Positions 7,445-54,500 of a DNA stretch of 64,000 nucleotides are shown piece by piece. The DNA comes from Dermatophagoides farinae (taxonomy: Eukaryota; Arthropoda; Arachnida; Sarcoptiformes; Pyroglyphidae): NCBI RefSeq assembly GCF_024713945.1, contig NW_027461521.1, positions 126,501 through 190,500 on the forward strand. The letters run 5' to 3'. Made by a program: the position numbers and the translations under genes. The notes beneath the pieces were generated by a model. It ran no database searches. It was not told the origin of the DNA and saw only the letters and a list, made by a program, of their open reading frames with translations. How positions within the stretch are numbered: position 1 is the stretch's first letter; every line of letters starts with the position of its first letter.

Positions 7445-10261
7445 ATGAACCAGAATATTTGTAAGTACTCTTTATTAACTTAACTATTTTCAGCTTTGTC
7501 GTCTAAATGGGTCGAAGAATTGCTGCGAAGAAACTATTCAACCTTAACTCAAATTTGGCACAGTGACTTTAAAAGAGACTTCGATCAATACCTGAACTAC
7601 ACACATTTTAATTCGAATGTCTCAGAAAACAACTCAGCTTCCTGGTTAGAAAAACAGCTATTAAACGATGAATATATAAGTCAAGGGGTTATACAGTTGG
7701 ACATTCAAGATTTAGATAATTTTATTGAGAATTTACGGTTAGAAAGATGGTATAAATTGCATGAAAATAACATTACTACACCTGATATGCCAGTAGCGAC
7801 TTCTTTCAACAGTACTTCACATTTTTTATGTATGTTTTTCAAAACCTTACTTGACGAATTGAAAATTTCATTTAAGAACTATATATCCGATTTACTTGAA
7901 CGAAACACTTCAATAGAAAAAGATATTATGCGAATTCTGACACTGATCGCATCCGATAACATTGAACTAGAAATATCTCCCATCAATTCTTTGAAACTAA
8001 GTTATCCTGCAGAATGTCGCGCTGAAGATGTTGGAAAGTTATTCTCCATGCAAGCTATCGTGACTAAATGCACCAGTGTAAAACCAGAACTTATACAAGC
8101 AAACTATTTGTGTGAAATTTGTGGTACAGTACGAAAAAATGTAAAGCAAGAATACTGTTTCACAGAGCCTGTACGATGTTGGAATGACAGTTGTAACAAC
8201 CGAACTCGTTGGAAAAGAATTCCAGAATCTTGCTTGTTTGGAAGTTGGCAACGACTAGTTGTTCAGGAAAATACAAACGCAGTATCAGCCTCTGGTCGAG
8301 TTCCTAGAACTATTGATGTGATAATTCGAAATAGTGCAGTCCAAAAAGTACGTTCAGGGGAAACAGCGATAATCACAGGATATTTAGCTAGTGTTCCAGA
8401 CGTAACAGGGTTAATGAGATCTGATTTACTACAAAGTACAATCACACGACAAAAAAACAAAGAACTTACTAAGGAATCTAATGTAGCTGAGTCAGGAGTA
8501 CATGGCGTTACCAAACTTGGAGTGCGTGAGTTATCATATAAACTTTTGTTTATGGGGCTACATGTCAAAGTAGCTACTAACAATCCTTCAAGAAGCGTTA
8601 ATAATTCTTCAGCTACGCAGAATGAATTAATTCGTCAGTTGTTTTCAATGAATACACCGCCCGCAGAAACAAGAGAGTTGCTTCACGCAGATACGAATAC
8701 TTTGAGTCAAGATTTACAAAGCGTTCAAACGTTCTGGCTTTATTTAGAAAACCCTCTAGTAGCATCTTACGGAATTACCTACGAAATTCATAAAACATTT
8801 AAACAATTAGGAAATGGATACAACGTTTTATCTAGGCTAGCTTCTTACGTTGCTCCGCAAGTATATGGAAATACTATTATCAAAGAAGCTCTTCTTTGTT
8901 TATTTGTAGGTGGAGTAGAAAAACATACTCATGGCATACATTTGCGAGGAGATATAAACATTTGTTTGGTTGGTGACCCGGGAACAGCGAAATCACAACT
9001 TTTAAAATGGACATATTCGTTTGCTGATTTGTCTGTTTATGCAAGCGGGAAAAGCAGCACTGCAGCGGGTTTAACTGCAAGTGTTCATCGCGACCCTGAG
9101 TCAGGAGAAAGCGTCGTCGAAGTCGGCGCTTTAATTTTGGCTGACACAGGTATTTGTTGCATAGATGAATTTGACAAGATGGACAACAAAGACAGAATAG
9201 CAATTCATGAAGCAATGGAACAGCAAACTATAAGTATTGCCAAGGCTGGAATAAGGGCCACGATGAACGCCAGAGCTAGTGTTTTGGCTGCTTGCAGTCC
9301 TGCACATGGCCGATACGATATCAAGCGAAGCTTAAGAGAAAATTTATACCTCGGTTCTACAATTTTAAGCCGGTTTGATTTAATATTTGTAATATTAGAT
9401 AACACTGACCAAGATGAGGATATTGCCATTGCTCGGCATTTGATAAAACAATCCAGAAATGAAAACATATTGTTTTACGATAGCGTGATTCAAAATAACG
9501 AAATGTTCAAGCTTTATATCAAAATTGCTAAGTTAATGAGACCTAGACTTACACCTCAAGTCAAAAATCTTTTAGCCAATAATTACGTTTCAGTTCGTCA
9601 GCAAACCAAACACAAGAATACAAATGGTTCTGGCAGAATCACTACGCGGCAATTAGAAAGCACAATTCGACTTTCAGAAGCCATTGCCAAATTGTCATTG
9701 TCTGACGAGGTATTAGAAAACCATGTTTATTCCGCCATTAATTTATTCAAACACTCACTTTATCGAATACAACAAGACAGCATAACAATCGAAGAAACTG
9801 TATCTGAAGATGAATTTGAAAACAACGAAAACAATGATTTTCAAAATAATGATAACCGTGAAATTAACTATTCCTTTTCAATTAACGCTGACGAATTCGT
9901 CAAGATTCAAAATATTTTAGTTTCACATTTGAAACTAGTCGAAACAGAACAATTTTTGCATTCTAATGAAATTTCTGGAATTAGCTATTACGACTTAGTT
10001 GGTTGGTTTGTAAAGCACAAAACATGTCACGAACAATTTGTTGAATACAAAATTAAAAAAATAATTAAAAAACTTTGTTCAATGAACATATTACACATCA
10101 ATTCACAAACTAAAATAATAACTATACACCCCAACTATTCCGATCACGCTGTTTCTACAAGTCAAACAATGTTAAACGACTCAGAAGAACCCATACATGA
10201 CAACCAAGATGCTACTCTCATGAATGAAAATGATTTCATAAATTATTTGTACAATAAATAG
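7445..10261 (+). CDS. MCM6: MCM6 replicative helicase subunit (two exons)
   Basis: MCM6 is one of the six AAA+ subunits of the MCM2-7 helicase that unwinds replication origins. Splicing 7445-7460 to 7494-10261 gives a 927-residue protein starting MNQNISLSSKW; without the splice there is no ATG near the N-terminus. The zinc finger at about 210-240 (CEIC, then CWNDSCNNRTRW) has the MCM6-type spacing and NRxRW/F ending, followed by the OB-fold stretch VPRTIDVIIRNSAV. Walker A is GDPGTAKSQ (about 498), Walker B ICCIDEFDK (about 560), and the arginine finger SRFDLIF (about 630). A C-terminal winged-helix region follows an acidic, Asn-rich linker. All ATPase residues are intact and the length is normal. 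Confidence 0.95.
7461..7493 (+). other. 33-nt spliceosomal intron in MCM6
   Basis: The donor is GTAAGT, a TTAAC branch-like motif lies shortly before the acceptor, and the acceptor is TTTTCAG. Removing it joins an upstream ATG exon of 16 nt to the long MCM6 frame in phase 1. Confidence 0.85.
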
Positions 10262-21059: not shown

Positions 21060-24000
21060 ATGAAGTTAACTCAAATTATTATTGAAGGATTTAAAAGTTT
21101 TCGCGACAAAGTCGTTGTTTCACCGTTCTCACCTAATTTGAACGCCATTATTGGCGCAAACGGAAGTGGTAAATCTAACTTTTTCGACGCAATTTGCTTT
21201 GCCTTGGGATTCAGATCTGGTAAAGACTTGCGAATCGACGAAAACGTAGATTTGATATATAAACGAGGGCAGCATAACGTAGAAACCGCTTCAGTGACTT
21301 TAGAATTCGATAACTCAGACAAGTTGACCAGTCCAAGTGCATATGTTCAGTGCGATAAAATCATCGTCTGCCGAAAATTGTCTATAAACGGAAAATTGCA
21401 CATATCTATCAACAAGGTTACTGTAAAAAATGTTGATTTACAAAAAATGTTGTTGGAATCTAGAATCAACGTGCAAACGGGTAATTTCATGGTTCTTCAA
21501 GGAAAAGTGTTTCGAGTTGTACAAATGAAGCCTGTGGAACTGTACAGCATGTTATGCGATACTTTAGGAACGAGTGGCTTCGACAAAGAAAAACAGGCTT
21601 GCGAGAAAACGCTGATCGAAAAACAAAAAACGTTGTCTGTCATTGAGCAAGACATCAACGAAAGTTTTAAGCCTGCGCTAGAAAAACTAGCTATTCAAAA
21701 AAAAAATTATATGGACTGGCTTACTATAAAGTCTGTTATTGAGCACAAAGAATACTGTATCGTAGAGGCTCGAATAACTGAAGTTAAAAAACAGTTGGAC
21801 GAACAAGTTGTTGAGCTACAATCCTACTACGAAATGCTCGAACAAGAAAAACGTGCTTTGAACGAACTGAATGAAAACAAGCAATTCTGCTCAACTAAAC
21901 TGGCAGAATTGCAAACGGAAAAAACTAAATTTTCAAATTCGGTCTCCATTGACGAGTTAGAAAAAGCGATTGAAGTGCTGAAGACCGAACAAGTAAAGTC
22001 TCACATGAACGTCAATATGAAGTCTACGGAGCTTAACACGTCTAAATTGACATTACAAAAGTCTGACGAGGAACTTCTTGAAGTCTCCAGCTTAATTGAT
22101 CAAATTGAGTCGAAACACTCGGATTTCCTGTCTTCTAAATCTGCTTATCAAAAAGAAAAAGCTAAGATTGAAAATGAAATTAGCTCAATTGACAAGCAAT
22201 TGAACTCTGCTCGTTTAGGAGAGCCTGTGGCAGATGATGGCGTTCCATTAAAAGAAAAAATAGCTACGTTACAAAAAAAATTCCAGGAGAAACAAATTAA
22301 GTTGTCTACGTTAGTTGCTAATATTGAATATAAGCAGAATAAATTATTAGAGAAGCGTAAAAAAAAAAGTACTGTCGATCACAAAAGCGATCAACTAGAC
22401 ATCGACGCATTAACGTCTGAGATAAAAAATTTAGAAAACAGATTATCGGACTTAAGGTTTGAAAAAGACGAATACGAAAATACTAAACGAACATTATCAG
22501 AATTAGAGCTCACACTAAATGAAAACAACAACTTATTTTCGAGGTTGACTTATCGTTTTAACTCTGAACACACTATTTTGAAGTATTTTACAAACAACTC
22601 TAAGGTTATAGGTACAGTAATGAGTTGCTTCAAAATCAAGCCGGAATTTCAAGACTTCACATTAGCTTTAGAAGAGTGCGCGAAGTCAAAACTCTTGCAC
22701 ATCGTTATAAAAGACGATGGAGTCACTTCTAGTATTTTTTCAATTTGCAAAACAAAACACATTGCGAGTAACATGCGTACCGTTAAATAACGTGTTCTTT
22801 CCTCCTCATTTGAAGAACGTGAAAAAAGAAATTTCACGTCATCCTGATGTTTATTGTTGTTTAGATTTGTTGACATACGACACCGTGTTTTGAAAATGTG
22901 ATATTTTACGCGTTCGGAAATACTTGTTTTACACGGGACAAAGCCATTGCAAAAAAATTAATGCTTGATAAAACGTTGAACAATACGATTATTGTGACAG
23001 ACGGAACGTCATATGATCCAAATGGAAAATCTCAGGAGGTAACTTGGTGGGTATGAACGAAATGATTAATTCTTGGAACAAATACATGGGACTGACAAAC
23101 AGTATACCTGAGAAAGTAAACTCTTTTGAAGAAACTAAAAAAAATTGCTTAATTTTATTGACATAGAGCATCAATACGACAGGATTTCCTCAGAGTTAAT
23201 AGTAAAGAAACAGAAATTGGAGTTGATTACTCCTTTGAATAGTCAAACTTCGTCTTCGGAGTTACAAAAAGAATTAAAAGAAGGACAAGATGAAATCGAA
23301 AAGCTCAATAGAGAAAGAGCCGATCTGGCATCAGAAGTCGACTCTATTGATGGTGAAATTAAAAAACACTTTAAAATGTATGAGAATTTTGCTGTCGATA
23401 ATAAAAAATATGTAGAAAACACTGAAGATCGAAAAAAATAAGCTGGTAACTAAGAAAAAAGAATTTAGAAAAACAGATATCCGATCTAGAATCAATGAAA
23501 AGTGCGGAAATAGAGAAAGAATTGCACGTTTTGAAAGATAAAAAACAAGAGTTGAACCAAGAAATTACTATGTTACAAAAACTTATTGAAGATAAGGAAA
23601 CAGAGTTAAGCTCACTGCTAAAGCACAAGGAAGAAATAGATTTGAATTTTAAAAAAAAATTTAGATGAGTTGTCAAGTATTAAAAAAAAACTTGAAGAAT
23701 TAGAATCTGCTATTGAAGAGTTTAAAAAAATCGCTAAAGGTCACAAATGAAAAACAACTGGAAAAGGTAGCTTTACAAGAAAAAATTCACACTAAAATAT
23801 CTTGCCTTAAAGCTACAAGCCAAAAGTTTGAAAAAGAAAAGTCGAACTTATTGGCCAAAAAAGATCAGTTAAATAAGCTCAAGCAATACAAACTTGACTT
23901 AATTTCCGATATTTTCCAGCAATGGCAGAACTTGAATTTCGACGATATAGTTCGAGATCTGGAAAAAGACAAAGAACGAAAAGAAGAATTGCAAATGTCA

Positions 24001-24577
24001 ATAAACCAGCACTCCATCGAGTCTTATGTGAATTTGGAAACTCAATTTGCAAACATCATAGAAGAAAAAAAAAAAGTAGAAATCGAGCGAGACTCTCTAC
24101 TCGATTTGATCGACCGAATTTCAAAAAACAAACAAGCAGTAATCACAAAAGGGTTCAGAAAATTTGCATTTCTTCTGAGTCAAATCTATACTGAGCTTGT
24201 GCCTAACTCTGATATCGTTTTAAACGCGGTCAGTAACACTGATCTTTCAAAAGGGTTTGAACTCCACATTATAATGAACAACGAAAAAATCGAAAGTTTA
24301 TCTAGTTTTTTCCGGAGGGCAAAAAACCATGATATCGTTGACGTTTTTGTTAGCTTTGTTGAAATTGAATCCGTCACCATTTTACTTGTTTGACGAAGTT
24401 GATTCTGCTTTGGACGTTGGTCACGCAACTAAGCTTGGATCTTTTTTGAAACGATATTTTTCAGACAGTCAATTTATAACAGTTTCACATCGCAAAGCTT
24501 TTTATGAGCATGCCGATAAAATTTTCATAACAGATTCGTCGAATGGAATAACTACAATTAAACAATATCTTTTTTAA
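21060..24577 (+). CDS. SMC2: SMC2, condensin ATPase, interrupted by about nine single-base frameshifts
   Basis: SMC2 pairs with SMC4 in condensin. The first 576 codons are clean: IIEGFKSF, Walker A GANGSGKSN, the SMC2-type stretch NFMVLQGKVFRVVQMKP and the first coiled coil into the hinge. From about 22770 the frame changes repeatedly while the protein goes on: hinge piece VPLNNVFFPPHLKNV, then NVIFYAFGNTC, then GGN, a second coiled coil, signature FSGGQKTMISL, Walker B FYLFDEVDSALD and the D-loop/switch end SDSQFITVSHRKAFYEHA. Shifts lie at about 22775, T4 22888, 23032, A8 23137, A7 23432, A6 23455, A9 23651, A7 23724 and T6 24306; some need a base added and some a base removed. Total span (about 1170 residues) equals a normal SMC2, so no segment is lost. 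Confidence 0.85.
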
Positions 24578-24578
24578 T

Positions 24579-26735
24579 TCAGTATTCAAACATAATTTCA
24601 TGTTCCGCTTCAAGCTTGAATTGTTTCTTTATGTGAAATTTATATGTAGCTCGCAGTGTGAATATGTAGAAAGATTCAATTAAGCTGCACAAAATTGAAA
24701 TTACAATTAAATAGTACTCTTTGTAATAAATATAGTATAAAACCCCTACGAATAAGCGCATATACAGTTTTTTGAATTTCTTTAATTTCAAGTAGATGAG
24801 TACTGCCTGGTACAGTTTTATCGTCGAAATCAAACGAATGTTTATTTATGATTCTAGAGACGTAGTTAATTGGTAATACGTTGTTAACGGATAGCTTGAA
24901 AATTATTTTATTGTAGGCGTCCGTGGAAATAATTTCTTGGTCAAGGGTTGTAGATGGTTGCGTTTTTTTTTTCTTTGTGAAGGAGATCTGCATAATATAT
25001 ATGGCTTTGAGACGAAAACGCGTTGCTTTTGCTAAGATATAATTGCCAATAGGTTACAATATTCCAAGAGTAATATAGCAAGAAAACATACATAATAACG
25101 AGAAAGTAATTGATCTGAGAAGATTTTATAATTATATTGCTCGCACAGACGGTGGAAATTCGCTGCTCGTAAGAAGCTAGAGATTTAGAAACTATTCCGT
25201 GCTTCTCAAAAAACTCGGTAATATACTTTAGAATTCTTTTTTGAAGGTTTAACAAATAAATGCTGAGCCGAATAATTAGCAAGCTTGAAAGTTCAATGTT
25301 TATTGAGTTTTGAATTTTATACAGGCAATACTTCAGATAAATTAAAGTAAGTAAATAGCTGATAATATCTACAATGTTATGCACTGCACTAAGAAGTATT
25401 TCGAAGGCATTTGACATAATACACAAAAGAACTAGGTGACTTACGCAATAAAATACTAAGATAACGTATTGAGCAGACGTTGATGTGTCGAATAGAAGCA
25501 ACAATATTAAAATAATTTTAATAAGTTGATTTAAAATTCCGATTGACATCAACGCTACATTGCTGTCTACAGTACAAGCTTCGGTTAAATGTAACCCTAC
25601 GTAGTGGAAGTTGTAACTGTTTTTTATAGCTACTTTTAAACTATTAAATATCAGGCTAGTTTTGACTACCTTTTGAAACTTATGTTGGCAGTCGAAATTT
25701 TCTACGTTTTCTACAAAGCATTGATAGCATCTCGTATCATCAGTGCTTCTGTCGAACGATGATGATTCGTTCTCTTTGTCAAAAGATTCTGAATTTTCTT
25801 CTTCTAACAAAGCAATGTCTATATCGTTGATTTTATGTGCACTAGAATTATTAGAATTTAAAGAGTGATGATCTTTAAATTTGTAACTCATAGTTTCTTC
25901 ATCAGTATTTGCATTTGACTCTTCCAGTTCTGAAAAATCTTCGTTGTTGTTCATTGTTTGCGGTAAAAAACATCCTTTACAGTATTTTTTTTTTGGAGCG
26001 CTGAGATATTTGTTCTTTTTGATGAGATCAAAATCATAAAACGGGTTTTGAATGTGTCGATTTCCAATGTATTTTTCAAATAAAGTTACAGCATTCAGTT
26101 GAATTAAATTTAAAAAGATCATAAAAAGATTCTTATAAATTAGTTTTGACTTGACTCTATAGACAAAGCGCAGTATCATAAGTGGCGTGTTAAAAAAGAA
26201 TAGCGAAATGACACATGAAAACTTAGCCGTGATAAACAAATCTCGAGATCTAATGTTATCTTGAACTTGTTTTTCGACATTTGAGCTGATGGTTAATGCA
26301 TATAAAAAAAAAAGTAATTATAACCAAGTACCTGTATTGAATTACATAGTTATCTATGAACTGGCATGAGAAGTAATCAAAAATAATTTCGTTGTAATCT
26401 AAACAGTAGTTGACAATTAGAATTAATACAGAAGAAAACTTTGAATTTATCAAATTCGAATCGTACTCGTGAAATGAATCTAATACAAACCAAATATAAA
26501 TAATATTAGTCACGCTGAATACAATTGGTAATAGATCTAAATCAAACAATTTTTCATTTCCAACGTAATCAACATATCTAGGAGCTCCTAAGAAGTAAAA
26601 CAATTGAGCCGTTTGTAGTATAAAGAAAGTGAACCATTGCGTAGATCTCAAAGAAGAATTGCTGGTAAAAGTAATATATAGTATATTACTTCCTTGAATG
26701 GATAAAAAAAACAATATATAACAAATTCGGTTCAT
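24579..26735 (-). CDS. Polytopic membrane protein of unknown function (two exons, two frameshifts)
   Basis: Splicing out 26286-26331 joins a 5' exon of hydrophobic segments (MNRICYILFFLSIQGSNILY...) to a long second exon through YSSNVEKQVQDNIRSRDLF. A change of frame at an A10 run near 24970 and another at an A6 run near 24775 then connect to a last hydrophobic stretch ending at 24579, for about 700 residues in all. I count roughly ten hydrophobic segments, with one long acidic Ser/Asn/Glu loop (about 25740-25990) that also holds two CxxC pairs (YCKGC, CYQC). The fold is not recognised; no RING, ABC or transporter signature is visible. The two shifts agree with the indel problem affecting this whole block. 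Confidence 0.55.
26286..26331 (-). other. 46-nt intron in the polytopic membrane protein gene
   Basis: On the minus strand the donor is GTACTT, and GCATTAACCATCAG forms the branch-like TTAAC and acceptor. Removal links two separately open frames without a stop. Confidence 0.65.
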
Positions 26736-27127
26736 CCACTAGCTTTTTTGTTAGTAAAAATAGTAAAATAAACTGGATAAATATAATTATTTTGACTAAC
26801 ATGAGTATACAAAGAAGCCTATATGAAGTTCTTTACGTCATTGTGAAAAAGGTTTTTAGTAGTGGATAACTATTTGTTATTGATTAATATTTAATAATAA
26901 CGAATTTAAATAATTTAATAAGTCCTGCTCTTTACTTAGTAGAGTGGTGATCAATGACAATAAAACAATTTTTAACTAGCCGTAATGTTAAATATTGAAA
27001 GCAAAAATTTTAGAAGATGTTGTGCTTCTGTGTGTGAAGACATAATATACGAATATCAATAGATTAAATGATTATTTGAACATTTGTTGTACTGTGTTTG
27101 TGATAAAATCGTGTTAGAAATGAACTT
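26736..27127. other. Divergent intergenic region
   Basis: AT-rich spacer between the minus-strand membrane protein gene and the plus-strand lipase. No ORF, RNA gene or repeat that I can support. Confidence 0.5.
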
Positions 27128-28986
27128 ATGAAAAAATTTGGCTTTATTTTTTTGTTGACTCGATCTTTTAGTCACATATTGACAGGTTCATTAGATTTAA
27201 GCAATGTTCAATTTGGAATTCAAGAAAAGTGTAATGTCGAGTTCGAGTGGTTTGTCAAAAGCTTACTAAATATACCAGTAGAGTACAGTATTTCTCGAAT
27301 ACAAAGACTTATTAAAACGGTTTGCTATATCAAAATTTCTGGATCATCGAACAATGTCATATTATTCCGCCGATTTGACTGAGCCTTTGAATTCTAAAAA
27401 AAAAAACAATGAAAGAAATTTAAACGAAAGCGAAAAATCGCTAATATTACAATCCACAATTATTTCGTTTCTGAATGCTATAGGTAATGACGCATTTTTG
27501 AAGAAGGAAAATATAAAAACAAAAAATGATGAATATTTATCGGATAAACCTAAACTTTCGTTGGCAGAATTGACAAAATATGATAGAGTCATTCAAAAAC
27601 TTTTGAATTCAGCTTATATAAATAATGTTTTGAAGGTATTAATGGAAAAACCTAGGTTAACAATTGAGGCAGACGAAGTTATATTTACTGCCAAAATCTC
27701 CGTTGTTAAATTTGACTAGTACAATTTGTGAAATAGATTCTGCAACTCCAATGCATAGTTGTTTTAGCTTGGATTTGTTACGTCATTTCACGAAATGTAG
27801 AGCTACTAAAACATCAACTTGTAACATTGAAAAATATAATGAAATCGCAACAATCTGCTCGAAACAACACCTGTCATGTGCCATCTATAATCAATGTTAA
27901 TACTCATAAAGAAGAATATAACCAATTGGTAGATGCCGATTATTTTTAGCAACTAGCCTATGGGCAAACTATGTCTATTATAAGTATGAATGTACCAAAG
28001 ACATAGATGACATAGCTAAATCCAATATACTAACAGGATATAAACCTGTATCTGTTTTTAATCTGACTCATCTGTACGAAGATGATCATTCAAAACAGAA
28101 AGCAATTACTGAGACTCCTTTGAGTACTGTTTTAGATCTGAGCGAAACCAATGCAAATTTGTTGTTGTAACGAGAGGTACATCCGTACAAAACGAATGGA
28201 TGATCAACTTCCACACGCTCATGATAAAGGCTGAATTATATGCTGGTAAAATACATAGTGGATATTACGTTATTGGAAGTCGACTTGCGTCTTTATAAAA
28301 ACCACTTTAGATACGTTGAAAAACCTACTATAGGAAAATATGGAAAAAAAAAACAATGTTAAAGGACAACGTAAACTTCAAGTGTAATGAATACGAAATC
28401 ATATTTACTGGCCATTCATTAGGAGGAGCCGTTTCTAAAGTAGCAGCTTTGGACCTATCTAAAATGATGCAAAACGCTAAAATCCATGTTGTGACATTTG
28501 GCTCACCGAATGTGTTTGACAAAAATGCGAACGAGTTATTTAACTCGAGTAAAAAATATACTTACAAAACGATTTTACATCTATGAATATGATGTAGTAT
28601 CTAAATTTCCTTGTACGAATGGTAATGGGATTCCCCGTTGCAAATATAGCAATGGAGAAAAAATATGACGTACCTAATATTTATAATGAAAATGATGATG
28701 AAGTTGACAAAAAAAAAACGTTATTAGAGATTATTATGTTGCAGATAATGATGCAAACGTAAAATTAATAGAATCAAAACATTTGCATATGCAAAATAAT
28801 ATTTTCGATGAGGAGAGCTTTGGAACTGTAATACTCAATAAAATAGACAAATCTATTAATATTGATAACATGTTAATTCCAGGTCCTTTCCAGTTTAGAA
28901 ATTCTCATGTTTGTTCTTACGAATGCTACTTTTTATCAAAATATTGCAACAATAAAAAAGTTTGCAAGTCTTGCCCAAAATCATAG
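27128..28986 (+). CDS. Secreted class 3 lipase, interrupted by several frameshifts
   Basis: The start ATG is followed by a signal-peptide-like MKKFGFIFLLTRSFSHI. The frame then changes at about 27360, 27690 and at several points up to 28760, but lipase motifs run in order: ATSLWANYVYYKYEC, the beta-strand RGTSVQNEWMINF (class 3 R-G-T), GKIHSGYYV (V-H-x-G-F), the nucleophile elbow IIFTGHSLGGAVSKVAAL near 28410, and VVTFGSPNVFD. These lipases hydrolyse triacylglycerols or phospholipids. The last part, ending CKSCPKS, is Cys-rich. The total span of about 620 residues is plausible for a secreted protist lipase with an N-terminal extension. It could be a pseudogene, but the retained motifs and the same indel pattern in neighbours favour sequence errors. 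Confidence 0.65.
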
Positions 28987-29122
28987 ATTATATCTAAGTT
29001 TATTCTAGGCATGTAAAACGTAATTGACCAAAAAGCACAAAATTTCAAATATATTTATTTTTTCGTAAAAAATCTTTTTGATTTCTATAAATAGTTGGAA
29101 ATATTTAAAGTAAACATTATCT

Positions 29123-29716
29123 ATGTCGTCTCGACGTATTCACAACAAAAAAATTTTGAAGTTTTATGAATTCTCACTAGATTTCACTCCCCTTTTGTCT
29201 TTAGTTTTAGATTCTCTGGCTGTTAAATATTTAATCAGCCACAAATTGAATATTAAAAACGTAATTATAGAAGTATTAGGTAATAGACCTTTTTCATTGT
29301 CAATGTACGATTGCAGCTGGAAAAAATCTGATGCAACTTTTCTCAATAACCTTGGTGTAAAAAAATTAGAATGTACACACACAAAAGACGAAAACAAAAT
29401 AGATGAATATAAATGTATAAAGTTTCATGCAAGTCATGGTAATCCAAAAAAACACATCTTTATTTTGAATGATAAAAGTATTTGTTTTAGGATATCGACG
29501 TTGAAATACACGCCTGTTTTATTTTTTCAAAATACAGCATTACGTTTCAGCAAAATTCCAGAAATTACTCGTGCGAAAGTTGAAAATAATATACAGAAAA
29601 AAGACAATAAAATTCTTAGTGGAGAAGAGAACGATAACTTAATCAAAGTAAAAAAAAGAAGAACGAAAAATCCAAACCCTTTGTCTGTATTAAAGCCAAA
29701 AAAAAAAAAATTGTAG
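29123..29716 (+). CDS. UTP23: UTP23, SSU processome PIN-domain protein
   Basis: A 197-residue protein. The C-terminus RRTKNPNPLSVLKPKKKKL is the hallmark Utp23 tail (K-G-P-N-P-L-S-V-K-K-K). The body follows the Utp23/Fcf1 PIN fold: basic start MSSRRIHNKKILKFYEFSLD, then CTHTKDENKIDEYKCIKFHA and HGNPKKHIFILNDK. VLFFQNTALRFSKIP is the L-x-Y-I-x-x-N-x-x-x-L-x-x-P motif. In Utp23 the PIN active site is degenerate and the protein acts by binding snR30 and ES6 of pre-rRNA in the nucleolus; here too few acidic residues remain for a nuclease. It is the one intact gene in the 27-36 kb block, even though it ends in a long A run. Confidence 0.85.
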   Translation: MSSRRIHNKKILKFYEFSLDFTPLLSLVLDSLAVKYLISHKLNIKNVIIEVLGNRPFSLSMYDCSWKKSDATFLNNLGVKKLECTHTKDENKIDEYKCIKFHASHGNPKKHIFILNDKSICFRISTLKYTPVLFFQNTALRFSKIPEITRAKVENNIQKKDNKILSGEENDNLIKVKKRRTKNPNPLSVLKPKKKKL

Positions 29717-29781
29717 TTGTCTAACACAATTATTGATTGAAATTACTAAACAAATATTGAAAATCTAAATTTTTCAATAGC

Positions 29782-32300
29782 ATGAAACTAGATGTTTTGA
29801 ATGCAAATTACATTAAATACGAACCTATTTTATGAACAATTTTTGAAAAATTAAACATTCGCTCAGACTAGTGGAGTTTGAAGGATACTTGATTCCACTT
29901 TTTTTTTTGAACGTACTAAAACCTTATCAAAAGAAGGTCTACAGTGGTTATTACAAAATTATGAATTAGGCATTAGTTGTATTTTAGCAGATGACATGGG
30001 ACTTGGTAAAACTATCCAAGTAATTGCTTTTTTATCAGTTTTTAATTGAGAATAAAAACATATTTGCAACCAGGGTCGTGTTCTTTGACTAATTATTTGG
30101 ACGACTTGTTAAAACAAAACTTCAAAGACAAAAATAAAATCGTTGATTCAATGCTTGAATATAGTGATTCTGTTTTTTCGAAACGTGTTTTGATTATAAC
30201 ATGTACTACACTGCTGTATCAGTTAGAAGCTGAATTTTTAAAGTTTTATCCGTTGATACACATAAAAATTCATAAAAGCACTAGCAGTTTAACTCAAAAA
30301 ATTAAAGAGCTCGGTATACATGTAGTAAGTTATGATTGTTGTCGCATGAACTATCATATTTTGCATGATATTCAGTTTGAAATGGTAATTCTCGATGAAG
30401 GACAAAAAATAAAAAATCCCAACGGTTTAACTACTCTTGCAATCAAACGAATTAAGTCAAAGTTTAAACTCATTCTAACTGGGACGCCGTTCCAAAATAG
30501 TTTCAGAGAGTTATGGAGCTTGATAGATTTCATTAACCCTGGTCTTCTTGGTTCTTTGCCTGCGTTTTCAAATGGCCTTCATATCTCCTATTGAAGACGG
30601 ATTTACAAAAGGGATGCCTCTTGATAAAAAGTTGTTCGCTAAAAAATGTTTAACTTTATTAAGAGGACTACTAACTGCCCATATTTTAAGACGCACCAAA
30701 ACCGATAGTAAAATACTTAATAACATTCAATGTGCTGAATTAATGTGTTTGTGTCCTATTACTGCCATTCAGTACAAATTATATATTAATTTTTTAAAGG
30801 AATATGGTCCACAGTTTCTCAGAAATATTACGGCTTTAAATTCAGTTCAGAAAGATACTAAAAACCATTCATTAAAATATTTTAACATTCTTAGTATTTT
30901 GTCAAACCATCCTGATGCCTTGTTTGAAAACTTAGAAGAATTTGAGTATAGAATACACCAAAAATAATTTGACGTATGGTGATTATGAACGTAGTGGTAA
31001 ATTAAAAGTAGTGCTTCAACTTTTAAAAAAGTTCGAATTGGAAGGACAAAAAGTTGTTATTTTTTCTCAGCGCATCAAATATTTGAATTTCATTGAAAAC
31101 TATATCAGTTCGTCTTACAAATATTTAAAATTAGATGGCAGTGTTACTTCGTACCAGAAAAGAACAAGTATGATCGATAACTTCAATACAAATTCAGATA
31201 TCCGCGTCTTTCTTATGAGTACAAAAATTGGGGGGTGTCGGTATAAATTTGTGTTCTGCGTCCAGAGTAATTATTTTTGATCCTGACTGGAATCCAGCAA
31301 ATGATTCTCAAGCTTTGAACCGTTGCTATAGAATTGGCCAATCTTGTAACGTAGAAATTTACCGACTTATAAGTGCAACTCCTTTCGAACAATACATGTA
31401 TCGCATACAAAAACAAAAATTATCTATTGCGAACGCAGTCTTTGACGAAGGAGTTATCCAGTTGTCTAAAAGAGATTTAACTGACCTTTTAGAATATCCA
31501 AATCCAATAGATTCCAGTCCGATGCTAGATTTTAACTCAATAGCATATCGTCTTTTACTAACTGCTCTCAAGAATAAAATTTCTTTTAACGACCCTATTA
31601 GTGATCCGAGTACTGTGTTCACAAAAACATTCGGAAATACCTCAAGTTTTATCAGAATTTGATTTTAATATTATCATTGACAAGATTTTCCAAAATTCAA
31701 ACTTAGCTAAAGATAAAGAATCTTCTTCCGATTTCGCAGATCTTATAAGTAATTTGAATCGTATAAATGAAGATGAATGCAGCGATGTTGATTACAATGA
31801 TGCTTATACTGACAAGCAAGCAGCTGTGAGTAATCTGTTTAAAGCCACGGGTTCTTTGGTATCTCAGAAGGAATATCAAGCCATCAATAATACTATTAAA
31901 CAAAAGTTAGAGACAAGTGTCAATTCGGAATTCCGCTCATTTGCTTTAAGTCAACGTGCCTGTCAAGCTAAAAAAGACAATGAACTTGTTTGGACTGGTA
32001 AGCATGGTGATGCTGGAATGGAAGTGGTAGAAAAAGCGAGACTTTATAGATGAAAGTCTTGTCCGAAGTTTCTTCGGACAAAAAGATTTTGAAATCTTGT
32101 TGAACATTATATATATATTACGCAACACACCGAAAAAATTCACCACTGGTGAATTGATAAAAAATGTTTTTAGCGACAAGTTCAATAGTCCTGAAAAAAA
32201 AATCATGTTTAAGAAGTTTCTTTTGATTATCTGTGACAAGATCGATTCGATACCTGTTAGGTGGCAGCTTAAGAAAAAGTTTTTATACGAATTTCATTGA
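29782..32300 (+). CDS. SNF2-family ATPase, ERCC6/CSB (Rad26)-like, interrupted by about eight frameshifts
   Basis: CSB/Rad26 remodels RNA polymerase II stalled at DNA damage in transcription-coupled repair. The motifs come in order across frame changes: LKPYQK / [13 protein letters not shown], Walker [21 protein letters not shown] (29980), [17 protein letters not shown], the DEGH box as [12 protein letters not shown] (characteristic of CSB), LTGTPFQN and [20 protein letters not shown]. In lobe 2 they are [40 protein letters not shown] and [23 protein letters not shown] and a C-terminal winged-helix stretch ([24 protein letters not shown]) match the CSB tail. Breaks include A4 near 29929, T4 near 30568 and G6 near 31231. 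Restoring each by one base gives spacings like CSB. The start is uncertain because of an early break. Confidence 0.75.
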
Positions 32301-32427
32301 TTATCAGTTCTTTAAGTTAGCAACGCCAAACTATTAAATCTGCCATTGTGAGGTCGTTATCGTCGTTTACAAAAGCAATTTTTTTAAACGATGCTGAGAA
32401 CTGAGTCCAACTCAGAAGGTTTTTGAC

Positions 32428-33471
32428 TCAGCCGTAGCCATCAATTTGTTTATTAGATTTTCTGGGGCATAATACTTCCAGAAAATTTTGTGCGAAGCTT
32501 GTAAAATATAAACACTTTAAAAGACACCCAATATCGATTTTGATATAGTTTACATCCCGAATTTCGATTATTTGAAAAGTGAATGGATATTGCTCTGTGG
32601 TCAACTGCGAGTCAGAAGCTGTTTTAGACAATCCATCGTTGTTCTTAACGATATTATTTATGCAAAAAGAAACAAAGCTGTCGTTTTTTAAGCCACAAAA
32701 CAAAAACACGGCATTTCTAGATTGCACGGAATGAAAACATATTTATCATGTTTAAGGACAATAGAAGTGCAAAAATTCAAGTTTCGATCTTTATTGGATT
32801 GGCTGTTTTCTTTCAAGATAGTTATTTGGTCTTTGTAGGCACAGCGCTAGTAGATCCGATAACAAATCAATGTTTCCTTTTATATCACTGCTTAGTGAAT
32901 TGAGTCTCGATAACATATAACTCATTGTTTTTAAATGCGTAAACGTCGATCTGGGTGCTGCTGGATTTAAGTTGCCCGTTTAGTTTTACAAGCGAGTAAG
33001 TAAAAATGTCTTTCTTCAAATCTTTGAAAACGAAACACTGACTGAGATTATTTGTTTCATTATTAAATTTTTCGTGACTAGGTCTTGCGCGTGAAACAAT
33101 AAATTTTTTCTCGAGAATTTTGGCGAACTTTTCACAAGAAAACTATAAATTCAATTCCTCGAGTCGCTCGATCTCGTTTGAGATGGTTGAAACAAACCGA
33201 TCAAAAATCCGCTATATTCATTTAAAGGGTAAATGTATGAGATTTTGTTGTAGATCGAATCAGAAATTTGCGACTGGGCGGTGTTTTTCGTTTTGTTGAC
33301 GATTTTGAAAAAATCGGACAGTTTTGCGATTATCTTTCCAGGCTGAGTTTCAGCTGGTTTCATGTAGTCTAAAAGCAAGACATTGTCACTCGTTGTGTAC
33401 TTGCTCATTAGATGACCCGCAGCTTTAGTTTCAAGCTTGTTAAGTGTTATTTGCCATTTGAAAATTCTCAA
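32428..33471 (-). CDS. Hypothetical protein, interrupted by frameshifts
   Basis: Consecutive minus-strand frames carry protein-like sequence over the whole span: KWQITLNKLETKAAGHLMSK, then after a shift at a T run near 33200 DRFVSTISNEIERLEELN. These are followed by KFAKILEKKFIVSRARPSHE, FVFKDLKKDIFTYSLVKLNG, AYKDQITILKENSQSNKDRN and finally QSRNAVFLFCGLKNDSFVSF. Together they would be about 340 residues. I recognise no family. The real start may be the TTG-opened end at 33471, the first internal ATG at 33408, or an exon upstream. Composition (Lys, Asn, Phe, balanced hydrophobics) argues that it is coding rather than antisense. Confidence 0.4.
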
Positions 33472-33537
33472 CTAAAAAAAACCAAAAACAAATTAATTTA
33501 GATCGAATAAATCTGCTTCTTGATTAATCGTTTATTG

Positions 33538-34093
33538 ATGGATATTGCACAAGTTTTTTCACTCGCTAGAGTATGTAACTACCACTTATTAGCTTTTAGA
33601 GAAAAGATTTGCTTCTAGCTTACGCGATTGTTCGGCAAAGCTCGAAACTTGAAAAATAGCGTCAACAAGCGACAAATCAAACTGTTGCAGCAAAACAATT
33701 TATTGACTGCTTGGGAAGTGGAATATCTTTTGAAAAATATCGGAATGAAACTGTCCAGACACGAAGCTGAGTTGCTTCTCTCTGAATTTGAGACGAGAGG
33801 TGGATTTAACGAAAAAGACGTAATGCATCTGTGCGCAAAAGTATTATCACAATCATATTCTGAAGGAAAAATTTTACAAAGCTTTAAAATTGCTTGCCAC
33901 CAAAGACGATAAAATAAAAGTATCTGTTCTAGCTGAGTACCTAATGAAAACCGGAACTATTTTTAAAATGTCTTTTGATCAAATAATTTTGTTCTGTGAA
34001 TACTGCCTCTATGAAGAGAAGAAGCAAGGAAAAATAAATCTGGACGACTATTTAGACATTGGAATCGTTGTAAAATGTGCTTTTATCAATTAG
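33538..34093 (+). CDS. Calmodulin/light-chain-like EF-hand protein (two exons, one frameshift)
   Basis: Splicing 33538-33570 to 33619 gives MDIAQVFSLARLTRLFGK and then an EF-hand-type helical protein: LLTAWEVEYLLKNIGMKLSR, HEAELLLSEFETRGGFNEKD, LLATKDDKIKVSVLAEYLMK and YEEKKQGKINLDDYLDIGIV. One extra A at about 33884 separates the two halves. The pattern of four helix-loop-helix units resembles calmodulin, centrin or myosin light chains, but the 12-residue calcium loops are mostly degenerate, as in essential light chains. About 168 residues. Function beyond a calmodulin-like partner role cannot be stated. Confidence 0.55.
33571..33618 (+). other. 48-nt intron in the EF-hand gene
   Basis: Donor GTATGT, acceptor TTGCTTCTAG. 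Removal joins an ATG exon of 11 codons to the EF-hand frame in phase 0; an in-frame stop inside the intron prevents read-through. Confidence 0.6.
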
Positions 34094-34132
34094 ATTTTTT
34101 GCAAACATGTTTGTTACATTTTCATATAAGTT

Positions 34133-34421
34133 ATGAAATTGAAGTTAATTCGATACGCCCTCTTGTTTAAGCTTGCGAGTTGTGAACCGTTTTTCCCCTA
34201 TTTAGGACGAAGTAAAACGCCACGGAGGAAAAACTCCTCCTGTTCCAGCGATAAGAAAACCGCCTCAGCATCTTCGAGTAAGCTATTTTTATCCTACTGC
34301 AAATAATTTCATAAATCCGGTAAAAACTCATGCTGAAATTCCTCCAGGATACCCGACATATTTCCCGCGGATAAATTTATATGACATTCCGCTTGCAAAT
34401 ATTGCGCAAATGTTTGAATGA
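34133..34421 (+). CDS. Small putative secreted Pro/basic-rich protein (one frameshift)
   Basis: The ATG at 34133 opens MKLKLIRYALLFKLASCEPF, a signal-peptide-like N-terminus. After one extra base in the AAAA near 34210 a second frame continues with HGGKTPPVPAIRKPPQHLR and ends AEIPPGYPTYFPR...LANIAQMFE. The mature part is rich in Pro, Tyr, Asn and basic residues, giving about 95 residues in total. An alternative is a short intron ending at TATTTAG near 34204. It lies tail to tail with the subtilase, nine bases from its possible end. No family recognised. Confidence 0.4.
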
Positions 34422-34430
34422 GTAAGTTGC

Positions 34431-36256
34431 TTAGTAAAACTTATAATATTGAGAAGACAATAGAGTCAATTCTTGCACGATGTTTGCTTTAAAATTTTCA
34501 ATTCGATTAGTTTCGTAAGAGTTATGATCAGCTTTATTGTTCAACGAGCTGTAAGACAAAGCTTCTGTGTTCCGAGTGCTAGTTTTTTGTCTATCCTTCT
34601 TAGGAAGAAAACTGTTTGAAGGATCATTAAATTTGTTTTTGGTTCTTTGTCGAATTGTTTAGCGAAGCGAATTTTTTTTCGTAAAGACTATTTGCATATT
34701 TTTAAAGCATTAACTGTGTCAGCTACCCCTCTACAAGCACAAATATCTTTTAAATTGGATGTCACTTTGCAAGAAGAAAGAATAGCTTCTTTACCTCTAA
34801 ATTTGTCAGTTGAGGGTATATAGACCAAATTAGTCCAGCCAAACCCGCAATATGTGGCGCGGCAAAAGATGTGCCTGAGTAGTTCGTATAACCATTAGAA
34901 GAAATGGAATATATGTTCTCACCTGGGGCAAACACAGACACGTGATCTTTTCCGTAGTTTGAAAAAAAACTTCTTCTTCCATGAATGTTAGACGCTCCGA
35001 CCGATATCATATTTGGTAAATTGAACCCAGATGGATAATGCTGTTTTTTTTGAATTTGACAAATCAATTCCTTTGTTTCCTGCAGAAGTGATGATTAAAT
35101 GATCAAAATCTTGCGTGGCTTTGAATGCTCGGTATTCAGTTTGATTAGGAGTCAGCTCGTAAACTGCCGTAGCTGTGGTTGCTTATCTTTGCGCCGTTTC
35201 TTATAGCGTAGTTTAAAGCTTTCAACTGATTACTAACAACTCCTTTGTCCTCACTAATAAACTTTAAACACATTGCATGGCAATGAGGGCAAATTGATCT
35301 GAATACAGGGTTCTTACACCTGCCCACCATAATGCCGGCCAGTGGAGAACCATGCGTCAGTTTTCCACCGAGATCATTATTGTTATCAATGAAGTTCCAA
35401 CCTAAACAATCGTCTATTTTTTCCGTTACCGTCGTTATCGATCAAATCGTAACAATCAGTTTCATTTTTTATTATTCCACAAAGACTTTTTGATTACTGG
35501 GTTAAACACATCGCAAACCATTGTCAATAATAGCTATTATTGGCCTGTCTACTATTTTAGGTAATTGAAATCCTAGCAAATTTCTATACTGAGGGTTGAA
35601 AACCACTTCGCTTCGCAAACCGTGGTCGTACGCTGCATTCAAGTTCCACTGCATGTCTTTTCTTTTGTCCAAGTGTGAAAAAATCGGATTAAATGGATTA
35701 AACAGCGGTGTTGTTTCGACATATTGACTCGCAGATCTTTTCTCATCTATTCTTTCATGTTTACTGGTCTATTGCATATGGGCAGTAATTAACTTACCGT
35801 TGCTGGGAGATCGTAGTCAAAATGTTTTTCTGGAAGTTCGATACTATTACGTATGAATTCTTCTTGCGAGGGCATACGAGGCTGAAGTTCTAAGATTTCG
35901 TCGTTACTGATTATTTCTATTCCGTCTATGTTTTTTGCCAAATCAGTTAATTTTGAAAAATTGTAATCATTTGGAATCGTAAGTACAGCCATGTTCAAGC
36001 TTGGTAAATACTCAACATTAAATTTTTGATTTATATCGTCCTCATTCAGTGTTTGAATTTTGCTCGTGTTCTCAACGCAAAGTTTGATAATTTTATCGAC
36101 AATAGATTTATGTAATCCGTCTTTGTTGCTGGTACTTTCGTTCTTTGTGAATGTGCTGTCATTTGAAAATATTATTGTATACGTGTTATTTACGATTGGT
36201 CTAGATACCACAGTACATAAGATTGAACTGACAAAGTAAATCCATTTATTATTCAT
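34431..36256 (-). CDS. Secreted subtilisin-like serine protease (S8), two exons, several frameshifts
   Basis: The N-terminus has a signal peptide (MNNKWIYFVSSILCTVVS) and an I9-type propeptide. A 29-nt intron follows. Across several frame changes the whole catalytic domain can be read: Asp in RPIIAIIDNG, the DNDGNGKIDDCLGWNF subtilase strand, His in KLTHGSPLAGIM (usual HGTxVAGI), NHSYGS, oxyanion Asn in LIITSAGNKGID, SVGASN, SNYG, and Ser in YSGTSFAAPHIAGLAGLIW. The catalytic part ends at about 34690 (VADTVNALKICK); with two more single-base corrections a Ser/Asn/Lys-rich tail would run on to 34431. In apicomplexans such proteases process invasion and egress proteins, but that role is inference. 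Because every catalytic residue is kept, I do not call it a pseudogene. Confidence 0.75.
35769..35797 (-). other. 29-nt intron in the subtilase gene
   Basis: On the minus strand it runs from GTAAGTTAATTAC to ATGCAATAG. Removal joins DYDLPAT to TSKHERIDEKRSASQ in frame. Confidence 0.75.
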
Positions 36257-36404
36257 TCTTATAAACTACCGTTTAATTTTGTATAATATTTTAGTTTCTA
36301 TCTAACAAGAACGTAAACCAACTATTTGATTGGCAGCAAAATTTCTTTTAATTAATTTTTAATTTAATTTAATTTTGTATTGACAGCGCGGCACGTTGAA
36401 ATGT

Positions 36405-51584: not shown

Positions 51585-54500
51585 ATGCCAATTGAAGTTG
51601 ACAATAGTTTTCGCAATGAATTATTAAGTGTCATATTTAAAGCAAGAAAAAAAGACGGACCGTCTATCCTAACTATTATCAATAATTACTACGTTTTCAA
51701 ACCACTTCTAGATATAATTTACAATAATAATTCAAACTGTTTATTCTCGAAAAACAACCCGGAAAATATCGATCACATAAATACAAATTTCAAGTCATTG
51801 AAAACTGATAAAATTGTTGTAGATGAAAATTTATTTTTGATTTATAATTCAGTTTTGCATCTAAACTTTGTCGAACCATTGGATTATTTAATTAAAGCTT
51901 GTAATAAAAGACATTCATCAGATGCTACAACAATATTGAACAAATCTGTTAAGTTTTTAAATAAGTTTAAATCACCTAAAAATGTAAAAACCAGTTACAA
52001 TGAGGACGTAATAAAAAAACTGCGTGTGCTACTAACGGTATATTCAATATTTGCAAGTCATAGATTAGGCGAAATACAGTGTTTGAAATGTAAATTAATT
52101 ATATTAAATAATTTGTTTGACATATTATTTAGTTGTGCTAATAGAACGATCAAGAGAAAACTTAGAATTAGTTTGTTAGAATATTTAAATATAAAATGGC
52201 TAACTCAGTTGATTGAAAAAATTGATTTAACAAGTATTTTTAGTAGTTATTGCTACTTAACGAATAGTTTGCCGTCGAAAAAAAGTGACATATCGGAAGA
52301 AGTAACAGATTTTTCATTGGTCAATGCTAAAGAAAAAGAAAATAATTTTAGCTTTTTACACGGTTACCAGCCCAAAAAAGAAACTTTTCCATATCATTCC
52401 GAACTATACATCCCGTGTAATATCACATCACGTCAATGCAACGATTATGACGATTACTATAATGACATATCAAACAGACAAGCTTATTATTTACGAAATA
52501 TGACCAAGCAAAAATCACGCCTAAGTTCAAAAAAAGAAAAATTTAACGATACTGATATAAAACAAGAGCGTACTTGTGCCCATCAAATGCGTACAAATCA
52601 TTACAAATATAATTATTTATCAATTCCACCGTTACTCGAATTGTTGTTTAGTCGAGCTATATTATTAATTACGAGCCTCTCCTTGCCAAAGTTGCTGCCG
52701 TGCGGAAAACGACTGCAAGGATTTTACAAGCATTCCAAATACAACGTACTAATAAATAACTTAATTGTGGTATCTAACAAAATTATTGAAAAATTAGCAT
52801 CATTTTCAAATCTGAACGTGCATTTAAATTTGCAAGACTACTGTCTAAGACATCACACAGTATACACTCGAAGTTTGTTGACTAGTCACTCAGCCATGAA
52901 GGATGTCCTTAATGCAAACTCTTTTGATTATAAAAAGAAATTAAACACAATAATACTAGATCTTACCCAACAAGACAATTTAAACAAATCAAACATCAAT
53001 GTATCTTATTCTCAATTGATGAGCACATTAGTTATCACGATAGCCGTGTGGCGTCATACGTTTAAACTCAACAACAATCTTCTCTTTTTGTACCGTAACC
53101 TAAATTACAATCTGCCAATTACAATGATGCTCATTGCTGAGTATCAATCCAAGTTCCCAGATAACTATTTGAGCAGAGAAATCGATAATTTAATTACATG
53201 GAAAAACACTTTAAACGAAAAAACAACCCATAATGAACTTAATCGTGAATTCAAAAGATATTTCAAAGATAATATTCTTCTTAACTTCACTGAACAGTCA
53301 TTTACTTTAGTCGACATTAAAAATAAAATTGAAATTCTTATTTTGACCATTGTTCAAAAAGTAAGCAATCTCACGTGTAACAAAAATTTGTTGGAAGAAC
53401 TATTAACAAATGATTTATTTTCGGTAAAAATCATACAATCTGTTCTTTTAAATTTCAATTTATCTTTTGTATTCGTTTCTAGCTGTTATTTGAAATACCA
53501 CGAGTACATAAAAAAATTTGATTTCAATTCTTTTAGCAATATCAATTCAGCACTCAGTTTACTCACAGACGAAGATTTTATCAAAAAAATTTTGCATGAC
53601 AGTAATAGAAAATTATATGATATATTATGTTTCGTCTGTAACTTATTAAAAAAACAGTATTCAGACAATATAGACGTTTTGAAATTTCTGTTAATTATAT
53701 CTTTACTAGATATTTATCGAGAAGAATGGATTAATTCTTTACTCAAGCTAGATACCGCAAATGTTGTGATCAAAATTTTACAAATCCTTCTAGACTATTT
53801 GTTTAACTTTTATTCCACTCAAGAAAAAACAAACTTTATGATGTTTGAACCAAAAAGTAAAGCATTATTCACCTATGAAGCGTTCATTCTTGACTTGATA
53901 ATCATTTTAAATGCAAAACATCAGTTTTACCTTCGAAGAGCGTTAAGTTTTTATCCCGCACATCTAGTTTTATCAAAAGCTACTGAATTAAAATCAACCA
54001 TTTTACCCGAAGCTTATTTATATGATTACATAAAAAACGAGACAAACGAAACGAGGCTTTCATGTTTATACGAAACAAATGCCGAAGAATTAATAATACT
54101 CGATAGTTTGTTTCGAGTTATTTTAAACTTCTTTGACTTTATAAATTTATCAGACCATACAGTTAATTTAACAAGAGAGCTGATCAAAATTTATCATTAC
54201 TTTCTCGACATTGTATCAGGACGAACGGATCAGAACACTAATGTTACATTTATCTTAACTGTAGCAACTTGTACTGACAACAATAAAATAGAATATTTGA
54301 AATCAATCGTTTCGATATACTGTAACATATTAAAAGTCATTTGCACTTTAAAAAATATTATTGCGACAACCTCATTTTTGGCTCATCAAAAAAGCAATGG
54401 CACAAACCAACAATACAAAAAAATCTTGAATGTATCTGCTTATATAGAATCACTAAGCGCTGATCTGGGCTATAACCGTTTGAACATCCCTCAACTAAAA

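What the first reader, a model, noticed from the sequence alone, without database searches (positions are those of the whole stretch)
22760..35900. A 13-kb block where almost every gene is broken by one-base shifts, flanked by clean sequence
SMC2 (3' half), the polytopic membrane gene, the lipase, the CSB-like ATPase, the hypothetical at 32.4-33.5 kb, the EF-hand gene, the small secreted gene and the subtilase all change frame repeatedly. Most breaks that I could place sit in A, T or G runs, in both directions, while motif order, catalytic residues and overall lengths survive. The PI4-kinase reads straight through an A10 run and the other long genes outside the block are unbroken, so the genome as a whole is not error-prone. 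This points to a locally unpolished or low-coverage assembly segment. The alternative is a very recent block-wide loss of constraint.
Basis: partly seen in the sequence, partly recalled or inferred. Interest (0 to 1): 0.7.

Follow-up and report, generated by a model that had tools for sequence, protein, structure and literature searches.

The report
Sequencing-error block in hidden parasite contig
The run of broken genes looks like a stretch of uncorrected long-read sequencing errors and not biology, but the contig it sits on appears to belong to an apicomplexan parasite hidden inside a house-dust-mite genome assembly.

Summary
A codon-model HMM finds 35 frame shifts in window 22,781-35,810 (3.2 per kb coding), against 19 in 200 kb coding outside two blocks (0.095 per kb). 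The interpretation (local unpolished or low-coverage assembly) is supported. Two nonsense codons are read through, as in indel-only simulations (mean 1.9); 4 or 8 substitutions per indel give means of 7.4 and 11.2. 28 of 35 shifts are an extra base. Homopolymer enrichment is two-fold, reached by 0 of 200 simulations, and intron motifs are not enriched. A second stretch of the same contig, C18:34,680-42,325, is broken likewise. No other close copy of the broken SMC2 was found. Read depth could not be checked. The assembly resembles Dermatophagoides farinae (62.43 Mb, PacBio; PMC11074847) in size, scaffold count and mitogenome length. C14, C15, C16 and C18 carry six MCM genes beside those elsewhere, and C18 encodes an F5/8C-ricin-LCCL protein of apicomplexan LAP2/4 kind. 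The block is an artefact; the hidden apicomplexan is worth following.

The parts
22781..35810 (.). Block of dense one-base frame shifts (35 called), read as unpolished long-read consensus
   Evidence: Maximum-likelihood elevated interval; counts
21060..24576 (+). SMC2-like condensin ATPase: 5' half clean, 3' half broken
   Evidence: Best PDB hits are SMC2; Pfam SMC_N profile 2-136 in the clean part, 137-212 in a block piece; other copies in the assembly only 37-50% identical over the tail piece
24582..26738 (-). Large membrane-protein-like gene in several frames
   Evidence: Open pieces; no Pfam family above cut-off; membrane nature judged by eye only
27130..28990 (+). Class-3 lipase-like gene, broken
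   Evidence: Lipase_3 E 5.7e-16 on one piece
29114..29716 (+). Open ORF of 200 aa inside the block, unknown, not visibly broken
29840..32340 (+). SNF2-family ATPase gene, CSB/ERCC6-like, broken
   Evidence: SNF2-rel_dom E 7.3e-26 and Helicase_C E 4.5e-7 on two pieces; best PDB hit ERCC-6
32431..33447 (-). Hypothetical gene, broken
   Evidence: Coding path in several frames
33530..34100 (+).
   Evidence: Two pieces; no Pfam family on the one tested
34130..34430 (+). Small secreted-like gene; frame change judged by eye only
   Evidence: sequence; not on the coding path
34790..36255 (-). Subtilase-like gene, broken except for its 5' part
   Evidence: Peptidase_S8 E 1.3e-17 on one piece; clean 5' ORF 35,789-36,265
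51585..57407 (+). Clean PI4-kinase-like ORF of 1,940 aa, internal control
7787..10261 (+). Clean MCM6-like ORF, one of a second group of MCM genes in the assembly

Best explanation
The block is a stretch of about 13 kb in which the deposited consensus keeps long-read indel errors, mostly one extra base and twice as often in homopolymers as expected, because too few usable reads covered it for correction. It lies on a contig of a co-sequenced eukaryote, most likely an apicomplexan living in or on the mite Dermatophagoides farinae, whose sequence depth need not match the host's. Shown: the shifts, their signs, their rarity elsewhere on the contig, the lack of matching nonsense substitutions, homopolymer enrichment, a second such stretch, and a second group of normally single-copy eukaryotic genes. 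Inferred: low read depth, PacBio reads as the error source, the host's name, and the apicomplexan identity.
For: 35 shifts in 10.8 kb coding against 19 in 200 kb. Nonsense read-through 2; indel-only simulation mean 1.9 (0-5 in 40 runs); with 240 substitutions per 60 indels mean 7.4 (2-14), with 480 mean 11.2 (6-19). Extra-base share 28 of 35; simulations with equal insertions and deletions give 0.50. Homopolymer ratio 2.01 pooled over both blocks, reached by 0 of 200 simulations with unweighted positions. A/T runs of 8 or more in block 1: 19 against 9.45 expected, p 0.004. Second block C18:34,680-42,325 with 15 shifts, 11 extra. Intron motif near 3 of 35 shifts, chance 0.0885. Six MCM ORFs on C14, C15, C16, C18; ABCE1 on C18 and another on C9 at 56-59% identity. 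The matching published assembly used PacBio Sequel subreads of N50 9,679 b (PMC11074847). [quoted passage not shown]
Against: No reads were examined, so depth is not shown. PMC4719071 says raw PacBio errors are not biased to homopolymers, which sits badly with the two-fold enrichment unless consensus calling adds it. The published assembly was polished with about 105-fold Illumina data, so a block missed by polishing needs locally poor short-read depth or mapping, which is unexplained. In the second block A/T runs of 8 or more are not in excess (5 in 7.9 kb). Two substitutions per indel are not excluded (mean 4.4, range 1-8).
Confidence: 0.92

Rival explanations
1. A real block of recently decayed genes (loss of constraint over 13 kb).
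For: Frames are truly broken in the deposited sequence, in most genes of one contiguous block.
Against: Neutral decay usually brings more substitutions than indels (general knowledge); the nonsense count fits indels alone and lies at or below the bottom of the simulated range with four or eight substitutions per indel. Extra bases outnumber missing ones 28 to 7. The block breaks SMC2, with no other close copy found (the co-sequenced genome may be incomplete). A second block is broken likewise.
Confidence: 0.03
2. Short introns of about 30 bases read as frame shifts.
For: The organism seems to have such introns: a GTAAGT...TTGTAG stretch of about 30 bases follows the PIN-domain ORF at 36.9 kb (sequence), and 6 of 18 shifts outside the blocks lie near the motif against 0.03 by chance.
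Against: In block 1, 3 of 35 shifts lie near the motif against 0.0885 by chance; in block 2, 0 of 16. Introns would not be expected to cluster in two blocks.
Confidence: 0.01
3. Programmed frameshifting or RNA editing that restores the messages.
For: Profile order and motifs continue across the shifts.
Against: Confined to two blocks, while long genes elsewhere on the contig read straight through; both signs occur; I know of no system that acts on a block of unrelated genes. No shift motif was searched for.
Confidence: 0.01
4. The block is a real strain-variable or partly absent segment of the co-sequenced organism, so that depth and polishing fell only there; the errors are still artefact.
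For: Sharp edges; the published DNA came from about 3,000 pooled mites (PMC11074847).
Against: Edges fall inside genes (SMC2, subtilase); no tandem repeats at the edges (other repeats were not searched). Housekeeping genes lie within.
Confidence: 0.03

Closest known systems
Gene-fragmenting indel errors in long-read assemblies (e.g. PMC12007338, passages seen)
   Same: Short indels, linked to homopolymers, that split genes
   Different: Here the errors cluster in two blocks on one contig; excess of extra bases, where the passages on that paper's nanopore assembly stress deletions
Apicomplexan contamination of animal assemblies (PMC5244568, passages seen)
   Same: Apicomplexan sequence inside an animal record; gregarines found there in 12 arthropod transcriptomes
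   Different: No mention of 'mite', 'Dermatophagoides' or 'Arachnida' in its main text; here long contigs with core genes sit in a chromosome-level assembly
Apicomplexan LAP2/4 (CCp) proteins (PMC11285972, passages and section 7 seen)
   Same: F5/8C, ricin B and LCCL domains in one large protein; the paper gives LAP2/4 two F5/8C domains, and its Cryptosporidium LAP2 (Cpa135) has ricin B and LCCL
   Different: The laminin-G domains that the paper gives LAP2/4 were not seen in the scan; 1,175 of 1,355 residues scanned; no tree made; the paper's domain figure is not held

Membership tests
Uncorrected long-read consensus block | Indels far in excess of substitutions | tested here: met
   up to about two substitutions per indel not excluded
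Uncorrected long-read consensus block | Local, with clean flanks | tested here: met
Uncorrected long-read consensus block | Errors enriched in homopolymers | tested here: met
   two-fold; long-run excess in block 1 only
Uncorrected long-read consensus block | Low read depth or discordant reads | not testable with these tools
   no reads held
Pseudogene block | Nonsense substitutions along with indels | tested here: not met
   2 read-throughs, as in indel-only runs
Pseudogene block | Genes dispensable or duplicated | tested here: inconclusive
   SMC2 has no other close copy found, but the co-sequenced genome may be incomplete; other block genes not tested
Apicomplexan genome | LAP2/4 domain set F5/8C, ricin B, LCCL | tested here: met
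   LAP-like sets also occur in chromerids, colponemids and some dinoflagellates (PMC11285972)
Apicomplexan genome | Ribosomal RNA placement | not tested
   RF01960 search not answered in 11 tries
Apicomplexan genome | Alveolin (PF12314) and AP2 (PF00847) genes | not tested
   searches not answered
Dermatophagoides farinae assembly of PMC11074847 as host | Size, scaffold number, mitogenome length | tested here: inconclusive
   62,435,336 b in 22 contigs against 62.43 Mb from 21 scaffolds; C22 is 14,266 b, the length quoted for D. farinae GQ465336.1; but C1 is given as 9,170,000 b against 9,172,953 b, that paper's own mitogenome is 14,320 b, and no sequence was compared

The most novel reading that the evidence does not exclude
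A Dermatophagoides farinae genome assembly holds a substantial part, perhaps most, of the genome of an undescribed apicomplexan of house dust mites (contigs C14, C15, C16, C18 and probably others), filed as mite sequence; its genes could have entered mite protein and allergen catalogues.
Probability: 0.75. Interest if true: 0.55.

Novelty: not a real feature. Interest (0 to 1): 0.4.

Why it matters
Anyone annotating these genes would call a cluster of pseudogenes that is probably not there. More important, the contig appears not to be mite DNA: an apicomplexan genome inside a mite assembly would distort gene counts, claims of gene transfer and allergen searches, and would at the same time offer long contigs of a little-sequenced parasite group from a widespread indoor animal.

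Tried and rejected
The first HMM stop test could not see nonsense codons: it read through none even in simulations with 450 substitutions, so it was replaced by the version and its zero counts are not used. A DNA search with 18.5 kb of window missed even the self match and is not used; a 2.55-kb piece found only itself and one 39-b match on C8. Introns, programmed shifting and decay were considered and set aside as given above. PDB searches with PI4K, ABCE1, MetRS, MCM6, V-ATPase a and phosphorylase do not by themselves place the organism; best hits for V-ATPase a and phosphorylase point to no one lineage. MetRS of C18 scores higher with bacterial and trypanosomatid enzymes than with the human cytoplasmic one (the names of the organisms are recalled from entry codes); that Cryptosporidium has this type is recalled. 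Microsporidia were considered from compactness and set aside because of long proteins and the LAP-like gene; no tree was made. Pfam scans of 30 further C18 proteins (searches gave 40 in all,'s ten from the window besides) found one apicomplexan-type architecture; the others with hits are general eukaryotic families. NCBIfam and Rfam, tRNA and tandem-repeat scans of the window gave nothing useful. A paper search on PacBio insertion excess returned none, so that PacBio long reads favour insertions is recalled. My notebook entry 2 put C10 in the second MCM group; on recount I leave C10 unassigned.
Full report
What was checked. The window is bases 126,501-190,500 of contig C18 (314,559 b) in an assembly of 62,435,336 b in 22 contigs. 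With the window I held C18:1-260,500 (20 pieces); the last 54 kb were not fetched and the first 2,500 bases read N. A codon-model HMM with states for the reading frames of both strands and for non-coding sequence was trained on 96 ORFs of at least 300 aa.

The block. With the final settings 35 frame switches fall between window 22,781 and 35,810, in 10.8 kb of coding sequence; this is the strongest elevated interval on the contig. A second interval, C18:34,680-42,325, has 15 switches in 5.7 kb. Nineteen switches remain in 200 kb (0.095 per kb; one search corrects the coding total, which did not leave out the first block). The number found depends on the shift penalty (23 to 43 in the block, 8 to 30 outside both), but the contrast holds at each of the three settings. 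A small third cluster of 4 switches at C18:108.8-109.3 kb was not pursued.

Nature of the breaks. In the block 28 of 35 switches are an extra base, in the second 11 of 15, elsewhere 10 of 19. Two nonsense codons are read through in block 1 and one in block 2. In simulations on clean C18 stretches (40 runs each), 60 indels alone give a mean of 1.9 read-through stops (0-5); with 120, 240 and 480 substitutions added the means are 4.4 (1-8), 7.4 (2-14) and 11.2 (6-19). Two stops are thus ordinary for indels alone, possible with two substitutions per indel, at the bottom of the range with four and below all 40 runs with eight. The posterior mass of shifts in homopolymers of 5 or more is 2.01 times the local expectation pooled over both blocks; 0 of 200 simulations with unweighted positions reach this, while 12 simulations weighted to homopolymers give 2.2 (79.1 against 35.5). 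In absolute terms only about 10.5 of 63.9 shifts fall in such runs; the weighted simulations give 79.1 of 406. A/T runs of 8 or more are twice as dense in block 1 (19 against 9.45 expected, p 0.004) but not in block 2 (5 in 7.9 kb). Intron-like motifs are not enriched at block shifts (3 of 35 against 0.0885 by chance; 0 of 16 in block 2), whereas 6 of 18 shifts elsewhere lie near one (0.03 by chance), so a few short introns probably account for part of the background.

Genes. Pfam on 7 of 43 block pieces, kept apart, supports SMC, lipase, SNF2, helicase C and subtilase pieces (5 of 7 above cut-off); the SMC profile continues from the clean half (2-136) to the broken half (137-212). PDB matches name SMC2 (172 bits against 92.5 for the best entry not named SMC2 or plain SMC protein) and ERCC-6/CSB. 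The tail piece of SMC2 finds other copies in the assembly only at 37-50% identity, so no second close copy of this gene was seen.

Whose genome. Samples of C1 and C8 differ from C18 in microsatellites (129.6 and 11.1 bases per kb against 2.35), though two other host-side loci (C9, C2) show none. Codon-usage correlation with C18 is 0.74-0.79 for three ORFs on C8 and C9 and 0.84-0.92 for four on C15, C16 and C18, two of which are C18's own. The C18-trained HMM switches in the 7-kb C8 sample, presumably host introns and foreign codon use, so I make no comparison of error rates with the host. The MCM6-like protein of the window finds six long MCM ORFs on C14 (two), C15, C16 (two) and C18, and other MCM loci on C1, C2, C6, C8 (two) and C10 (orthology of each not worked out, C10 unassigned, C14 not sampled for codon use). 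ABCE1 occurs on C18 in one open frame and on C9 in two pieces at 56-59% identity. Two sets of such genes point to two eukaryotes. One protein of C18 (C18:219,960-224,027; 1,175 of 1,355 residues scanned) has F5/8C, ricin B and LCCL domains. PMC11285972 (passages and section 7) gives LAP2/4 proteins of apicomplexans and chromerids F5/8C domains, cites the Cryptosporidium member as having ricin B and LCCL, and reports LAP-like variants in some dinoflagellates. I infer an apicomplexan, probably gregarine- or Cryptosporidium-like given an arthropod host, without a tree or rRNA.

The host. PMC11074847 (text parts 1-3 of 5 read; passages) reports a D. farinae assembly of 62.43 Mb from 21 scaffolds, largest 9,172,953 b, from PacBio Sequel subreads (mean 7,442, N50 9,679 b), merged from three assemblers and polished with Illumina reads, with contamination removed by BLAST to microbial RefSeq; it quotes 14,266 b for a known D. 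farinae mitogenome. Here C22 is 14,266 b and C1 is given as 9,170,000 b. The match is close but not proven; C1 differs by about 3 kb, that paper's own mitogenome is 14,320 b, and no sequence was compared. The mite-like look of the C1 sample is recalled judgement.

Mechanism proposed. A co-sequenced parasite at its own depth; in two places too few long reads, or short reads that failed to map, left indels in the consensus. Block sizes (13.0 and 7.6 kb) are on the scale of single subreads. Shown: the pattern. Inferred: the depth. Against a simple account: short-read polishing should have caught such errors, and PMC4719071 (section 8) states raw PacBio errors are not homopolymer-biased, while PMC12007338 (passages) gives homopolymer indels as 92% of PacBio CCS errors. 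That PacBio reads favour insertions is recalled.

Known or new. The block is an ordinary kind of assembly error. An apicomplexan in a D. farinae assembly was not seen in the listings of my searches (titles and abstract starts: 12 of 177 papers, 10 of 16, 15 of 1,189, 16 of 17); PMC5244568, a survey of apicomplexan contamination, has no mention of mite or Dermatophagoides in its main text. Most subscription literature is not in the library.

Changes made in checking. Odds were lowered slightly where facts were weaker than first written: 0.93 to 0.92 for the artefact, because two substitutions per indel are not excluded, and 0.8 to 0.75 for the apicomplexan, because the LAP-type domains also occur in chromerids and dinoflagellates. 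The strain-variable rival went from 0.1 to 0.03 so that the odds add to one.

Noticed in passing
C18:34,680-42,325 (loci L006, L007): Second block of dense one-base shifts over other genes, same signature
   Followed up: partly
C18:219,960-224,027 (L018/L019): Large ORF with F5/8C, ricin B and LCCL domains, as in apicomplexan LAP2/4 proteins
   Followed up: partly
G000 contigs C14, C15, C16 (L036, L037): Further MCM ORFs, those on C15 and C16 with C18-like codon usage: probably more contigs of the second eukaryote; C20 and C21, with long open frames, may belong too
   Followed up: partly
window 36,903-36,933: Intron-like stretch of about 30 bases (GTAAGT...TTGTAG) after a PIN-domain ORF; the organism seems to have few, very short introns
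   Followed up: partly
C18:11,269-12,780 (L004): Methionyl-tRNA synthetase scoring best with bacterial-type enzymes, without an obvious targeting extension
   Followed up: no
C18:108,787-109,318 (L013): Small cluster of four apparent shifts near a low-coding stretch; nature unknown
   Followed up: no
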